Shown here in pieces: positions 28,030 to 41,153 of a stretch of 64,000 bases of DNA. The stretch covers positions 1,426,001 to 1,490,000 of the forward strand of contig JAWWNJ010000028.1 of assembly GCA_037176885.1 (NCBI GenBank), given 5' to 3'. Source of the DNA: Favolaschia claudopus (Eukaryota; Basidiomycota; Agaricomycetes; Agaricales; Mycenaceae). The translations under genes were made by a program, and so were the position numbers. Within the stretch, counting starts at the first letter, position 1, and every line of letters begins with the position of its first letter. Below the pieces are notes generated by a model. The model saw nothing but the letters and a program-made list of their open reading frames with translations, was not told the DNA's origin and searched no databases.

Positions 28030-28038
28030 AGCTCTCTG
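28030..28038. repeat. 9-bp target-site duplication, outer transposon (left)
   Basis: AGCTCTCTG here is repeated exactly at 35767-35775, directly outside the two terminal inverted repeats. Confidence 0.9.
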
Positions 28039-28588
28039 TAGTCTCGTGACCAGACTCTTATGACATCCCAAAGGGAACCCTGTCATAGGTTCGGAACAAG
28101 CCGCTTCCTCACACTCACATGACATTCACGTGCGGACACACGGAATTTGAGAAAGGGCTTGTGTCAAGATGTCAAAAAAGGGCAATGTCTTCGTCGCGCC
28201 GTACAGCTTCGAAAAGCGCGCCAATCTCTCTGTGTAAAAGGGATTTATTGTAGCTGGCATGTACAAATGTTAGTCTATCAACTCAGAAATTTGAAAAAAG
28301 CCCGCTCGTTGCCGCAATAGGCTGATGATCTACCGTCTCGAAACGGAAAGTGCCTATATGAATGATGTCGTTTGGAGTCATTGAACGTGTAGTTACACTA
28401 CAAGGGTGAAGATACGATTAAGGAAAGCTTTCTGCAACTTACCGTTTGAAAACTGAAGGTCATTTGAGTGTTCTAGTCGCGAATGATTGACTCGCCGAAT
28501 CCGGCAATATTGGTCATCACCGCGTCGCGTCTTTTTTTCAAGCCTCTAGCACCTACGTTGAATTTTCTCCGCTACCTACCAAGCTAAT

Positions 28589-31100
28589 ATGTCACACCGA
28601 CCACAAAACACACCAATCTCACCACAGACTCCTCGCCGCCGGCCCTTTACTCCTGTGCCACCGCATTCTCCTAGCACTCCTAGGCGGCACGTCCCTCCCC
28701 TCTCGACACGTCTACAGGGCATAAAACCCTGGAAATCCAGCGTAGAAGTCACCAGAAAAATGGTGGTAGACAAGCTCAAACTCACTTACCAACCGGATGA
28801 CTGGCAAATCCATCTCATTATCCGAATTCTCCGTGGCTACGACTCCCTTTTTCTCGCCGGAACTGGGTATGGAAAGAGCTTGATCTTTGAGGCAGTAGCT
28901 GTTCTTGGGGGAAAGAGTCGAATCACCATTGTCATCTGCCCTTTGAAAGCACTCGAGGCCGATCAGGTGTGTGCACAATTCCGATTACAAAGTAGAAAAA
29001 AAACTCACTCACTGCCACTGTCAGGTCAAACAAGCTTGCGAAAAAAATATCAACGCAGTTCTTATCAACGAGGACAACACCAGCGACCCAATCGTCTGGA
29101 AACAAGCTGAAAAGCACGCCCAGCTGGTCTATATTTCCCCCGAAATGGCACTAAGTGACCGTTTTGGGAAACTGTGGACAAATGTCAAATTTCGTACTCG
29201 TGTTAATGCTTTGATCATCGACGAGGCTCACTGTATCGATGAATGGGGCGAAGAATTTCGACCCATGTACCGAGAGCTTCACCGACTGCGCAGCTTCACT
29301 GGCCAGGAAGTCCCGTTTGTTGCGTGTACAGCAACATGCGCGACAAATACTTTCAATGTTATCTGGAGCTCCCTAGGGTTCGGACACCGTCCATTCTGGG
29401 GTCTGGATGTTGGGTCTGATCGGCCTAACCTCTTCTTCCATACTCGCACCCTCACCAATGTCCACAACCCGATTCTCGACGTCTTAAATGTCTTACCGGC
29501 AGACCTCGATGAAAACTCCGACCCCTCTGCAGTCCCAAAAATACTGACCTACCATGGCTCAGTGGCTGGCACAGGGAGCGCAAAGGCAGCATGGAGACGC
29601 GCATTACCTGCTCACCTACGCGGCTGCGTTGTCTCGTATTCTTCCGACATATCCGAGGCTGCCAAGAAAGACATATGGGAAGGATTTCTGTCAGGCCGTT
29701 ATCGGATTCTATGCGCTACAGATGCGGCGGGGATGGGCTGTAATGCGCCAGACGTCGAATTCTCGATTGTATTCGAATGTCCGAGGTCTCTTGCTGTACT
29801 CATTCAGCGGTGGGGACGCGCAGGCCGGAACCGAGTGGGGATTGGGACATGCATGTTCTTCGTACAAAAATGGGCATACAGACCAGCCCCACCAACAGTC
29901 GGTCTTGCGGTGCAGAGGGTCAAAGGCAAGGAGAAGGTGGTGATTGAACCTCAGACTCACACGGCCTCGCGCGCGAAGCTCGATCCGGCTCTCGAGGGAT
30001 TCATCAACTCCGGGACATCCACAGAAGGCAGGTCGTCTCCGAGATCAGAGTACAAGATATTAATCGCTTTATTCATAGCGTGCTCCCACGTCTTTGTCTC
30101 CAAATCTTTTCGACCGGAAACTGGACTTGACACTTATACCAGCTTGACTGACACTTTCTTATCCCGCGCCGGAACTCTTTCCCGTAGCTCCCCGCATGAA
30201 CTCAGCTGGACAGTCTTGGAGCTGAATCGTGCACCACCGCCAACTCGTTGCTGCATCCACTGTAACCCTACATTCCTTGACTGGTGTCAGCCATCAAGCT
30301 CTCGCGATCCCCGCATTTTGAAGTACGCGTCAGACTTCGTTCACCCTCTTCCAGTCCCGCCCTCTCGCCCTTCCTCTCCTGCCTCTGTCATCTCTGATAC
30401 TGGCACCGTGGCGTCACAGCAGTCAAACGAGTTTGAGCCAGTCCGCGGCAAGTCGTCAGTATCCAAAGAAGATAAATCCTCGCTACGAGAACTGCTTATT
30501 ACATGGCGGAAGGACCGACATTTTCGGATGGGAAACAGTCCTTACATCCCATGCGAGGTTCTCCTACCCCCAAAACAGTTGGAGAAGCTGGTTTCATCTT
30601 GCGGCATCTTCCTGAAGTACTCTCTCGTCGAGTCACACCATATTAGGAAAGCGGTGGATTGGGACATGGCAGCCGATGAAGATATTGCGGAAGTGTGTGA
30701 TGTCATCTCGCGCTGGAGGCTGACCCTGGAAATCAGACGGACACCAGAGTCAGCACGTCGGCCGCAAAAGAAGCCACAGACAGCTGCGAGTCCTGCTATC
30801 ACACAGCCGGTATTCACCCCGCTTCCGGTTCGCAACTCTCGTGGGAGTCCACGCGGTGGAGGGCGAGGACGGGGACGAGGAAGAGGCGGCACACCACGCG
30901 CCACTATACCTACTACACCTATTCCGGTCCATACCCCCACCTTTCAAATGCCCCCTTCTCGTTACGACGACTTTTTTTCATCTGTTGCCTCTTCACGGAC
31001 TTATACACCAATACCTCTGCGACACTCCTCTAGTTTGGCATCCAATACTTCTCATTCATATACACCTCCTGTTTCTGGACCTCCGCTATACCAGCCATAA
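28589..31100 (+). CDS. RecQ-like SF2 DNA helicase of the inner transposon
   Basis: This is an ATP-dependent DNA helicase with a RecQ-like core. After a Pro-rich leader (MSHRPQNTPISPQTPRRRP), a Q-motif-like stretch precedes motif I, AGTGYGKSL. Then come motif Ia-like VICPLKALEADQ, motif II DEAHCIDEWGEEFRP (the RecQ form), motif III CTATCA, motif IV-V ILCATDAAGMGCNAPDVE, and motif VI QRWGRAGRNR. An intron at 28967-29024 separates ALEADQ from VKQACEK. Instead of RQC and HRDC domains it has a long Ser/Pro-rich tail with an RGG-like run (GGGRGRGRGRGG near 30860). The core is intact, about 800 aa after splicing; a further intron near 30030-30130 is possible. It lies wholly inside the TIRs, tail-to-tail with the DUF6589 gene. 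Role inferred: unwinding or repair during transposition, or simple cargo. Confidence 0.85.
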
Positions 31101-31114
31101 ATACAATACAATTT

Positions 31115-34113
31115 CTATTCTACACCATCAAAGTCCCCGCCGCCACCTAATGCTCCGGAAGTACCCAATTCATCTCCACTGTGTACATCCGTGAACTCGT
31201 CATATCTAAGAGGATTAGCCTTCAGATTGTCGAAAGCGGTACCCGTATCAAGTGTTGTATCCCGCGTGGTATTTTTTGAAGATGATTCGTCTGGTGGGTA
31301 TCCACCCAGAGCAGGATCAAAGGTTGTGCTCTTGATGAAGTCATAGAACTTCCCGTTCCATTCTTCCGCACCCTTCACAAACACGTCAACAATTGCGGAC
31401 CGTGGTGGTTCGATCGGCGGGGGGTTTTTCGGGGGATTCTTTGGTATTCTTTTTGGCGGAGCGGGGACAAAGTGTCTGGTTTCACTGATGACATGGAACT
31501 TGCGACGCTGCATTTCAGAGACCAAAGCTTCCAGATCTTGGTTGAATTTGACCTCCTTGTGTCTCCGAGCACGATCTGGGTCTCCGAAAAAGTTCGCAAC
31601 CATGTGAGTGACATCGCGAAAAGCTTCAACACAAGCAGAGCCTTTCTGAATGATATACTCAACAGTCACCCCTGAGCCCGAGGCAATGAACACCCCCTGT
31701 GATACCAAAAGTTGTCAATGAATGTGGACAAAAGCATAACGCACACCTTAACCCAATAGTTGAGTTGTTCAAGATATAAATCGGACGCGATAGTCCGACC
31801 AATGATACCCCAGCGATTAATAAACCAAGACCTCTCAAGCGCCGTCCGCAACTTCTCAGGTAGTTCATATTTCCACCGAATCAGAACTTCCGCACATTCT
31901 CGAGCGTAGTTGTGTTGTCCCACCCCACGAAAAGCCAATGTCCAATATTTCAGTACCCGTATGAGCTGCCCAGGGTCCCCAAAGCTGACAGCTTTTTCGA
32001 AGAGACAGAAAAACAGGGCATCACGGATGAAATAAATTGAATGTGCCATCCAATCGTCTCCGGCAGCCTGTGCTGCTTTCGCGGCTGTTGCAGTTGCAAA
32101 ATTTGTTGATATAGCTGATGCGATTTGTTGAATACTTTCCCAAGTCGGCTCCCATTTAGCGAGTTGAGAATACAACGTAAATCCCTGGAGAACCCTATGA
32201 ATAACGGTCAGTCAATACATCGAACAAAGACTAATATAATTTCGTCACTGACATGACACAGTGCAAAATGCGCGCAATCAACGAATGGCGTATAAGAGAC
32301 TTGGCTGCAGCGTAATTTGGCTTGTTGACATCCCATTTTCGATTCAGGAGGCCCTTGTGTGCAGCCAGAGAGGCAGGATCCTCCACAGCACGTCCCAGAT
32401 GTGTTCGCATAATCATATGGGTTGCCTGAAGCGCAAAGTGAAAAGGCGCACTTAATTCCTGTGCGTATTCGAGCCGTTCCATCGCGTTGACATCGTCTGC
32501 CCGATCCCGCCGTGCCGCCCGTAAGTTACTGGATGTAAGCCAGTCACCGACAAAAATCCGCCAAATTGATGACCACCGACTTTCCGGAACAGTGCTTCGC
32601 TTTTGGATTGCGCTGAGGACCTTCACAACTCCTTTCTTTGATCCTTCATTCACGTCGAACACCCCGAATGGTCTAGCATCTGTTTTCGTTGCGGGGATTG
32701 GCCGATCCTTGGGCAACATTCCTCCCACCCGATCAGCAATATCTTTGCGATCTTTCCAGCGATTGTTTCCGGGAGTAAACACGACGATCATCTCCGCAAT
32801 GAGAGCTGTGAACGACTTCCCGATGATCTCGTCGTCCTCCGTGGTTGGTAGAATGTCAGATGGCTTCGCTTTTGCCCGCTGACCCCGGAGCGCAAGCTGC
32901 TCTGCCAGATCGGCTTCCGTAAATGCCTCCACATCCGGGATTCCAACAACTGCACAATTTGTGGCATTGATCATGTCGTTTGTACTCGAAATTCGCTGCT
33001 GTGATTTTCGGATAAAGATGTTGATGTTGTCGAAGATGGAGAAGAAAACTTGGCCGCTGAGAATCAATTGTATGGCCAATTGGATCGCGTCTTCGGTGAT
33101 GCGAGTCTTCACTCGTTCAACAGTCTGGCCTGAGACACAGACTCCAGCGTTGCTCAGCATCTGAATGACACGAGAGCTGGTCCCCGAAATTTTGAAGAAA
33201 AGCCCGAGAATGAGGGGTAGCACATTGGTGGATCGATTACGAACAAAGGCTAGCATTGATATAACTAAGAGAATGACCTAGATTGAAGTTTGAGTTACTT
33301 GTAGACACAAAAACACACGGGACATACAAAAACAGGATTGCGCGAGAAGCCTGGATATTCCGATGACCAGGCACTTTGCGGGACACTTTCAGGGTCAGCT
33401 TCGCCGGACTCCTGCTCGTTCTCGTCGTTGGGATCATCCTCCCAATCATTTCCATCCTCCACTTCATCCTCAGCCATCGACATGGCTGCCTCCCTTTGCC
33501 GCTGTTTCCTGGTACGATTGGGGGAAGTGGAGAATGTGTGAAGTAGCCCCCATGTAAATGGGGCAAGCCCTTGAATTATCTCGATGAGTTTATCGGGCCG
33601 CAGCAATCCCCGAAGCTCTCTAACAGTGAGAGTTTTGAGCCGGATGCGCAGAAGTGGGCTAGTGATGATTCTGTCGCTATCCTGCAGTGCGAGTTCGTGG
33701 GCGCAGGGAATAGACATCTGTCTAATGTACTGCTGCGCCTTGGGCCACCGATCTGCATTCCGCCAAAGGTCGAAGAGCATTGCTGGTGCAAATTGTGACT
33801 CTAGCGTAGATTCGGTCCCAAAGAAGCCCATGAAATGGGATATGCGCCTGGTAACACAAGGTATTTCGGTTGTGAATAGCCAATACACTAGTTGACGAGT
33901 AGAAACAGAGAGGAAGAGCATGAGAGAGAAGATGAGATGGAGCCGATCTTCGAGAGTTAATCCGCTCAAATGACCGGCGGGAAACCGAGAGTTCCAGTAT
34001 GCATCATCATATTTAAGGGTAGCCAGGATAAAGAAGAGTCGATGCCGTCGAAAGTATTGGGCGGAAGGCTGGAAGAGCGAGCTTGAGTGAGTCGTTCTGT
34101 CTGCGTGTCACAA
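31115..34113 (-). CDS. DUF6589-type protein, candidate transposase
   Basis: This large multi-exon protein matches my memory of DUF6589 proteins, which are very numerous in Agaricomycete genomes. Conserved-looking blocks: SIFDNINIFIRKSQQRIS...DMINATNCAVV near 33080-32950, FGVFDVNEGSKKGVV near 32650, IFVGDWLTSSN near 32550, and PFHFALQATHMIMRTHLGRA near 32390. The spaced Asp residues (FDN, FDVNEG, VGDW), with a Glu in MERLEYAQE, could be an RNase-H-like acidic triad; that is inference. Exons run at about 34110-33295, 33256-32231, 32200-31740 and 31690-31115; the last carries a Pro-rich and Gly-rich tail. No good ATG opens the first exon (the open frame reaches back to about 34113), so a short upstream exon is likely. 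Its stop is 14 bp from the helicase stop. Confidence 0.75.
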
Positions 34114-34556
34114 TTGTGTGACTAATGAAACGCGTCGTGTCACATAGTCCCGATTCGGCTCAAATCTTCGTACCGCGTCTGCTGCCTGAGGGGAGGCGAA
34201 AAAATTCTAACTTTTGCTGAGAAAGTTTTGACAAATAGTCGTGTAAAGCCCTAGAGACCCTCAAATTAGAGGCTGTGTTTCAATCCAGCCTCATTCTGTT
34301 CGAGTAGCAAAATGCAAGTGGCCGAGGAAAATGTCTATTCAGATCCCGTAATTTTTGTTCAATTTTTCCAAAAAGTAACCCAGCTTACAGACTTTTGAGT
34401 TCTCAATATGCGACTACTTTACTTCTAGGACATTGGAACTCATCTGAAAGAGATATTCGGGTCCCGAGACATCCCTTCTTTTCGGCAGTTTGGAGCAAGC
34501 CTCTCTCCGAGGAAGTCCGGCTTGTCCGGACCGGAGAAAGGCTTGTTCCGAACCTA

Positions 34557-34808
34557 ACCCTGTCATAAGAGTCTGGAACAATCACCGGCTGTCGAACCAT
34601 ACCATGGCCTTATCAAAATCGATTGCTTTTTCACACACTATGTGGCCTCCTCGGAGCCTCTTCCGAGCTTCCGGATAAGTTTCTCACACGTTTGCCTGCC
34701 CTTCGGCGCGTGTTTAAAGCGTGTTTTCGACGCATTTTTGAGTCCTTGTCCTCTACCAAAGCACACACAACCCTTGCCTTTAGCTCTACAAAGTCTCTGT
34801 GCAAAGAT
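34557..34808. other. Outer-element sequence right of the inner insertion
   Basis: After the second ACCCTGTCA copy the outer element resumes with TAAGAGTCTGG, the partner arm of its subterminal hairpin. It then continues as a leader before the truncated helicase. An in-frame extension upstream to 34623 has no domain. Confidence 0.6.
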
Positions 34809-35747
34809 ATGGACTCAGATGCCTCAAATATTCGACTTACATCTCGTACACATACAAGATCTACATCTACATCCAGTGTTACTTCCTCTGTGTCTACTCC
34901 ATTGCGTCCAAGTGGGCTTCAGGCTATGTCTACAAGCTTTGATTCTCCAGTGAATCCTCTAGCTCCTGTTTCAACTCCCAAACAATTTAGACATGGCTTT
35001 GAAGCTCAACCAAAAGCTTTACCTTTTAAACCATATTCCTTGAATAGCCCAGGCACTCCCACTCAAGCAGCTTTTGTATCAGCACAGAATACTGCCTTAC
35101 AGAATATTCTAACTCTGGATCCTGATCAATGGACTGAGATTGCAAGGGAGGCTAGGCTCATACCTGAACAAGCAAAAGTTCGTTCTTTCCAGGTTCAAGT
35201 CTGTAATGCAATCCTGATGCGGAAAGGGGATTGTGTGGTGATATCAGCCACTGGCTCTGGCAAATCACTTACTTGGACACTCCCTCTCGCTGCGAGAAAA
35301 CAAGGGATTTCCCTTGTTATCACACCCTTTACAAGTCTTGGATTGGAAGGTGAACTCCTGTATGTTTAAGTTCACATCTCCCTCTGTGATACTACTAACA
35401 AATCAATCAGAAGCAACACTGGAAATATATCTTCAAAGTTCATTTACTCAGAGCAGCACAGTCAACAAGACTATGAAGATATAGCTCAAGGTGATATGAT
35501 GGTTGTCTATGTCTGCCCGGAAACACTGGAGAGCCCAGCTTTTGCCAGACTTTTACATTCAGATTCATGGAAGAAAAGATTGTCTGCAATATATCTTGAT
35601 GAGGCACATCTTGTACACCAGGCACGAGGCTGGCGACCTTCATACTCTCGCATCTATCAACTACGAAACATAATTGGGCATGCCATTCCACTTATCTGCC
35701 TCTCCGCTACTTGTCCTAAAGCTTGGGTTCCCTTTGGGATGTCATAA
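34809..35747 (+). pseudogene. Truncated RecQ-like helicase of the outer transposon
   Basis: This is the N-terminal half of an SF2 DNA helicase. ATG at 34809 (MDSDASNIRLTSRTHTRS) opens a Ser/Thr-rich leader. It is followed by RSFQVQVCNAILMRKGD, motif I VISATGSGKSLTW, and VITPFTSLGLEGEL. A 51-nt intron (35360-35410) separates that from MMVVYVCPETL, motif II YLDEAHLVHQARGWRPSYS, and motif III LICLSATCPK. The frame then runs straight into the right TIR and stops at TAA 35745-35747. The whole second RecA domain (motifs IV-VI) is missing, so it cannot be a working helicase. It is only loosely similar to the inner helicase. Its codon use is clearly more AT-rich than neighbouring genes, suggesting a different origin. 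Confidence 0.8.
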
Positions 35748-35775
35748 GAGTCTGGTCACGAGACTAAGCTCTCTG

Positions 35776-40262: not shown

Positions 40263-40289
40263 TGTTCCAAGGGCGATCCAATGTCGAAC

Positions 40290-41144
40290 TAGGTTCGGAT
40301 CAAGCCGCCTTCTCAACTCACATGACATTCACGTGCGGACACACGGATTCTGAGAAGGGGCTTGTGCCAAGATCAAGAAAAAGAGGGATGTCTTGAGCTC
40401 AGTCCAGGAGCTCAGCCGTTGGCGGAATCCCTTCTCTGTAAGTGTATAATATGTACCTGAGATGTATTCAAGCAGCATGAGCTACTCAGATTATTATTTT
40501 ATGCCCGTGTTGCTTCAATACAGCCCGCTGATGCTACGCTTCGACGAGCAAGAAAAGGCTGCAAAAATCCTCCACTCAGGAGTCAACATTTGTTTTTTGG
40601 TCCCAAATTTTCCTGAACATATGTATGGATGTCAAGTATGCTTTCTGTGTGATTTTTGAGTTTCTTTATGTCTCTGCGTCCACTAGGAATATGGTTTGCA
40701 ACTTGGCAAGCGCGTTTGTCACGCATGTCACATACGTGACATTTCACCCATCGCAGCGAAATTTGCATTCCTTGGGCGAAGCATTGGATTTCATAGCAAA
40801 ATTGTGGTTGAGAAGTTGTAGTACATAATCATATTGGCCACTCCGAGGCAGAACTAGTTGCATATAGCTGAAAATCAAGGTGATCCATAGAGGTTTAGAA
40901 AATACCGAAACAAGCACAAAGTCCAAAGATAGGACACTAAAATCGAGGTATTTTATCAATTCAGATGCATGAGCATATGGGTATGCTTCTATTAACCAAG
41001 CTTGAACTTGTTTCAAGAGCGTTGGTGCTGAATTACGGGCAGTAGACAATCATGAGGACATTGGCCTTTTTTGGTAGTTTGGACCAAGCCTCTCTCCGAG
41101 TTAGTCCGGCTTGCCCGGACCGGAGAAGGCTTGTTCCGAACCTA
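40290..41144. mobile_element. Non-autonomous element of the helicase/DUF6589 transposon family
   Basis: This 855-bp element has ends TAGGTTCGGATCAAGCC / GGCTTGTTCCGAACCTA and a 9-bp duplication ATGTCGAAC at 40281-40289 and 41145-41153. Its left ~110 bp and right ~90 bp closely match the corresponding ends of the 6.5-kb element at 28086-34556. It contains no coding sequence. It sits just upstream of the Zn2Cys6 gene at 40262 and may alter that gene's promoter. The equivalent sites upstream of the paralogues at 45600 and 63910 lack it. Confidence 0.9.
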
Positions 41145-41153
41145 ATGTCGAAC

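What the first reader, a model, noticed from the sequence alone, without database searches (positions are those of the whole stretch)
28086..34556. A 9-bp-TSD, TIR transposon carrying a RecQ-like helicase paired with a DUF6589-type protein
Perfect 17-bp TIRs and a perfect 9-bp duplication (ACCCTGTCA) enclose exactly two convergent genes, an intact RecQ-like helicase and a DUF6589-type protein. DUF6589 and RecQ-like genes are abundant and mostly unexplained in mushroom genomes; this boundary evidence argues that the pair is transposon machinery. From memory, helicase-bearing Academ elements (AcademH) are the nearest described group, but whether the DUF6589 link is known I cannot say.
Basis: partly seen in the sequence, partly recalled or inferred. 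Interest (0 to 1): 0.9.

Follow-up and report, generated by a model that had tools for sequence, protein, structure and literature searches.

The report
Mushroom transposon carrying RecQ and DUF6589
In the mushroom Favolaschia claudopus a mobile DNA element with many copies carries two genes, a RecQ-type helicase and a protein of the unexplained family DUF6589 that is predicted to be the cut-and-paste enzyme itself, so a gene family common in mushrooms is likely a hidden transposase that would work together with a helicase.

Summary
In detail: 28086-34556 is a 6,471-bp element with perfect 17-bp inverted ends, a perfect 9-bp duplication and two convergent, open genes. Its ends recur at dozens of places in the genome. 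Of 21 distinct copies read at both ends, 19 have an exact 9-bp duplication. It is nested in a second element of the same design (28039-35766). That element's full-length relative (5,501 bp, contig C24) also holds RecQ plus DUF6589 and its own 9-bp duplication. The empty target site exists uninterrupted in other copies. AlphaFold models of two DUF6589 subfamilies resemble DDE transposases (Hermes, P element, Tn5, RAG1), with D281, D443 and E639 98-99% conserved. The Pfam model covers only residues 334-735 of the protein, so it misses the first predicted catalytic Asp. RecQ/DUF6589 linkage recurs in this genome and in other Agaricomycetes. Best reading: an AcademH-type DNA transposon (helicase plus 9-10-bp duplication) whose DDE transposase is what Pfam calls DUF6589. 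Homology to the Academ transposase itself could not be tested. The kind is known; the name DUF6589 was in no held paper.

The parts
28086..34556 (.). inner element, 6,471 bp, complete, potentially autonomous
28077..28085 (.). 9-bp target site duplication ACCCTGTCA, left
34557..34565 (.). 9-bp target site duplication ACCCTGTCA, right
28086..28102 (+). left terminal inverted repeat TAGGTTCGGAACAAGCC
34540..34556 (-). right terminal inverted repeat, 17 of 17 identical
28589..31100 (+). RecQ-like SF2 helicase gene, predicted intron 28967-29024, 817 aa; only the DEAD and Helicase_C core was matched
   Evidence: Pfam; gene model; solved-structure matches
31115..33921 (-). DUF6589 gene (P0001, R3P38DRAFT_2622936, 882 aa); predicted introns 33278-33327, 32195-32252, 31697-31746; predicted DDE transposase
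33029..33031 (-). codon of predicted catalytic Asp 1 (D281 of P0001, FDN), strand b1
   Evidence: coordinate worked out from the exons
32543..32545 (-). codon of predicted catalytic Asp 2 (D443, GDWLT), after strand b4
   Evidence: coordinate worked out
31897..31899 (-). codon of predicted catalytic Glu (E639, NYAREC), in a helix after an all-helical insertion
   Evidence: coordinate worked out
28039..35766 (.). outer element of a second family, interrupted by the inner element; 1,248 bp of its own sequence
28030..28038 (.). 9-bp duplication AGCTCTCTG of the outer element, left
35767..35775 (.). 9-bp duplication AGCTCTCTG of the outer element, right
34623..35747 (+). truncated RecQ-like helicase reading frames of the outer element
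40290..41144 (.). 855-bp non-autonomous copy of the inner family, duplication ATGTCGAAC at 40281-40289 and 41145-41153

Best explanation
This is a DNA transposon whose DUF6589 protein is predicted to be its RNase H-fold DDE transposase and whose RecQ-like helicase likely assists transposition, which makes it most likely an AcademH-type element. Shown: ends, 9-bp duplications, multicopy spread, the empty site, two convergent open genes, and linkage of the two gene types in several families and species. Predicted: the DDE fold and the D281/D443/E639 triad. Inferred, untested: the DUF6589 protein pairs the two ends beginning TAG, releases the element and joins it to target DNA with a 9-bp stagger that repair turns into the duplication; the RecQ-like enzyme unwinds the ends or the strand-transfer product so that second-strand processing and gap repair can finish. 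Short copies without genes would be moved in trans.
Confidence: 0.86

Rival explanations
1. The element is a helicase-bearing DDE transposon but not an Academ: DUF6589 transposases form a separate superfamily that resembles AcademH in duplication length and helicase by convergence.
For: Nearest solved folds are hAT (Hermes) and P element; no Academ sequence was available to compare; a helicase-bearing lineage of another superfamily, KolobokH, is mentioned in print (passage).
Against: Helicase plus 9 or 10-bp duplication is the described AcademH combination (passage), and AcademH is reported from Basidiomycota (passage). Whether any Academ structure is in the fold library is not known to me.
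Confidence: 0.2
2. DUF6589 is cargo or a captured host gene, and the helicase or an unseen enzyme moves the element.
For: Pfam lists DUF6589 without function; the outer element in the window keeps only a helicase fragment.
Against: DUF6589 recurs between 9-bp-duplication ends in at least three diverged families, one without a detected helicase; it has a predicted DDE fold and triad; the six ORFs scanned gave no other domain.
Confidence: 0.06
3. Helicase-driven, Helitron-like rolling-circle or replicative mobility.
For: A helicase is present; a tandem array with 5,970-bp period lies on contig C24.
Against: Perfect inverted repeats and 9-bp duplications, which Helitrons lack (recalled); no HUH nuclease or PIF1 domain in the six ORFs scanned; the helicase is RecQ-type.
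Confidence: 0.03
4. Chance inverted repeat around two neighbouring host genes.
For: None found.
Against: Dozens of places sharing the same ends, and an empty site.
Confidence: 0.005

Closest known systems
AcademH lineage of Academ DNA transposons (Kojima 2020; paper not held, known here from passages citing it)
   Same: Encodes a helicase; 9 or 10-bp duplications; present in Basidiomycota (passages in PMC10045372, and PMC10799480).
   Different: Sequence relation of the DUF6589 protein to the Academ transposase untested; DUF6589 is in no held paper and PF20231 only in an unrelated optics paper.
AcademX
   Same: Same superfamily name if the filing is right.
   Different: AcademX makes 3 or 4-bp duplications and goes with a nuclease instead of a helicase (passage); here 9 bp and a helicase.
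hAT transposase Hermes
   Same: Best solved-fold match; RNase H core with a large helical insertion before the final Glu in the models.
   Different: hAT usually makes 8-bp duplications (passage); no hAT model matched in Pfam.
RecQ family helicases (RecQ, WRN, BLM, RECQL5)
   Same: Helicase core over residues 66-405.
   Different: No RQC, zinc-binding or HRDC domain matched in the frames scanned; encoded inside a transposon.
Academ elements of Marasmius oreades
   Same: Putative non-autonomous Academ elements reported as widespread in an Agaricales genome (passages).
   Different: No RecQ/DUF6589 link stated in the passages seen.

Membership tests
AcademH | encodes a helicase beside the transposase | tested here: met
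   RecQ-like helicase in the inner element and in the full-length outer-family copy
AcademH | 9 or 10-bp target site duplication | tested here: met
   exactly 9 bp in 19 of 21 distinct copies of the inner family and in other families
AcademH | DDD/E transposase with RNase H fold | tested here: met
   by prediction only: two models and conserved D/D/E
AcademH | transposase homologous to Academ transposases | not testable with these tools
   no Academ sequences available; the 2020 paper is not held
AcademH | no XPG-type nuclease (XPG recalled; 'nuclease' for AcademX in the passage) | tested here: met
   six ORFs that span most of the coding stretch were scanned with Pfam, none matched a nuclease; the end stretches were not scanned
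hAT | 8-bp duplication | tested here: not met
   9 bp
hAT | hAT-type transposase by sequence | tested here: inconclusive
   only DUF6589 above cut-off in Pfam, no hAT model at E up to 1; a remote relation is not excluded
Helitron | no inverted repeats, no target duplication; Rep and PIF1 domains (recalled) | tested here: not met
   inverted repeats and duplications present; no such domain in the ORFs scanned
RecQ helicase family | RecQ-type DEAD and Helicase_C core | tested here: met

The most novel reading that the evidence does not exclude
The whole DUF6589 family of mushrooms is a single large clan of DDE transposases, left as an 'unknown domain' because the Pfam model starts after the first catalytic Asp, and it forms its own superfamily in which a RecQ helicase is a second, dedicated transposition enzyme that sets the 9-bp stagger.
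Probability: 0.22. Interest if true: 0.75.

Novelty: new member of a known kind. Interest (0 to 1): 0.56.

Why it matters
DUF6589 has 117 listed matches in this genome alone (102 loci) and homologs across Agaricomycetes, nearly all named hypothetical or uncharacterized. Naming it as the likely DDE transposase of helicase-bearing elements would let many mushroom gene models be moved from host genes to transposons. It also gives a matched pair of open genes with defined ends, on which the question of why some transposons carry a RecQ helicase, and whether it sets duplication length, could be tested directly.

Tried and rejected
De novo search for paired ends around the C46 RecQ/DUF6589 locus found no second end in 8.5 kb; only its DUF6589-side boundary was set, by comparison with C149 and relatives. 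A paired-end scan of the 30 DUF6589 loci gave one hit, with a 7-bp repeat in L065 that I take as chance; the flanks were short and the end-mismatch limit was too strict to find even the L060/L065 pairs. Profile search of solved-structure sequences with the DUF6589 alignment: no match. Kojima 2020 is not held, so Academ homology stayed untested; papers citing it gave only the passages quoted or bare citations. No Academ- or KDZ-named structure appears in the fold lists, which does not exclude them. No genome paper for Favolaschia in the listing. Copies L006/L007 (one insertion on two contigs) and L008 have both ends but no duplication and are counted as misses; copies read at one end only (for example L034-L036) and extra internal left ends in L030 and L031 were left out of the count.

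Full report
OBSERVATION. The window is contig C28:1426001-1490000 of a 264.6-Mb genome. A protein record 100% identical to the minus-strand gene product over 98% of my model names the host as Favolaschia claudopus (P0001; its contig length, 2,061,054, equals that of C28). The 17-bp inverted ends and the 9-bp duplication are as described. The left end matches 44 listed places in the genome, 41 of them starting at the first base. The right end matches 40 listed places, all starting at the first base. Both lists are capped, and they include allelic duplicates (for example C19/C434).

COPIES AND DUPLICATIONS. I read the top eight loci of each end search (L001-L016) plus 20 chosen regions (L017-L036), mostly picked because left and right ends lay at a plausible distance, not for their duplications. 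A script found 19 end pairs whose flanks match over exactly 9 bp and at no other length tried, 5 to 13. Two of these are one insertion on two contigs, and the split pair L019/L020 adds one more (GATGGAATC). That makes 19 of 21 distinct two-ended copies; L006/L007 and L008 have none. These copies range from 103 to 7,441 bp, and L019/L020 spans 14.5 kb.

NESTING AND EMPTY SITE. The inner element lies 47 bp inside an outer element, 28039-35766, with its own 9-bp duplication AGCTCTCTG and a 42-bp perfect inverted repeat. Joining the inner element's flanks gives a sequence that other outer-family copies match across the junction. In the four loci cut out it is present letter for letter over 61 bases with a single ACCCTGTCA; these four are the two ends of one C24 copy, its C110 counterpart and a C115 copy. 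The complete copy at C24:2158642-2164142 is 5,501 bp, is flanked by TGTCGACTC on both sides, and holds helicase reading frames on + and DUF6589 on -. The window's outer element is 99.25% identical to that copy's first 1,206 bp, so it is an internally deleted, non-autonomous derivative.

LINKAGE. DUF6589 gives 117 match rows, merging to 102 loci, from 601 first-look candidates of which 102 were scored. The window helicase gives 71 rows merging to 43 loci. 19 of the 43 lie within 8 kb of a listed DUF6589 locus; about 0.007 are expected per locus by chance. Of the other 24, ten were read and all ten show a DUF6589 profile match beside the helicase: the window, C118, C231, C19, C434, C102 twice, C20, C172 and C30:628111. 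That makes at least 29 of 43; 14 were not read. Of the 30 best DUF6589 loci, 12 have a listed helicase nearby and 7 more show one within their 1.5-kb flanks, so 19 of 30. Genes are convergent in some families and divergent in others. Consecutive locus tags occur in Panaeolus cyanescens, Coprinellus aureogranulatus, Rhodofomes roseus and Candolleomyces efflorescens.

OTHER FAMILIES. Two 99.97%-identical 3,174-bp DUF6589 elements (L060, L065) have duplications GGTCTACCG and CGACTTCAA and no detected helicase. The pattern TAGACTCG-N3 to N6-CCAG, taken from a fourth group of ends, occurs 562 times against 140 for the reversed control. I read ten inverted pairs of the 17 that I count in the printed part of that listing, one of them 5,911 bp around the DUF6589 locus at C5:2142626-2143828. 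All ten have exact 9-bp duplications; two share the same flanks. The ends of these four groups begin TAG or TAA and run into TTCG or CTCG.

MECHANISM. Shown: past mobility, a 9-bp stagger, open genes. Predicted: DDE catalysis by DUF6589. Inferred: helicase assistance and trans-mobilisation of short copies. The helicase is likely not needed in cis (L060/L065).

COMPARISON. A held paper's passage says AcademH generates 9 or 10-bp and AcademX 3 or 4-bp duplications, which its author relates to helicase and nuclease (PMC10045372, passages only). Another says AcademH occurs as low-copy elements in Basidiomycota, Ascomycota and Mucoromycota (PMC10799480, passages only). Both features fit. The 2020 paper itself is not held and transposase homology is untested. 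'DUF6589' occurs in no held paper, and 'PF20231' only in an unrelated optics paper (listing only).

Noticed in passing
window 28039-28085 and 34566-34610: The outer element's end holds a 16-bp inverted repeat (its positions 12-27 and 43-58); the inner element's target ACCCTGTCA is positions 39-47, at the junction of loop and second arm, so it may favour such sites.
   Followed up: partly
L031 269-1321; L030 201-1110: Elements of the inner family appear inserted into the subterminal part of their own family: duplications AGAAAGGGC and AAAAAGGGC at L031 341 and 478, including a 103-bp element that is little more than two ends.
   Followed up: partly
L054, L055 (contig C24, about 1474-1487 kb): Head-to-tail array of RecQ/DUF6589 elements with a 5,970-bp period, units separated by a 9-bp spacer GAGGGGGAA.
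   Followed up: partly
own genome, pattern: Short elements of about 453 bp with TAGACTCG...CCAG ends and 9-bp duplications (nine pairs read), likely moved by DUF6589 elements.
   Followed up: partly
contigs C19/C434, C24/C110, C10/C155: The same insertions or loci occur on two contigs, so the assembly likely holds both haplotypes and copy counts are inflated.
   Followed up: no
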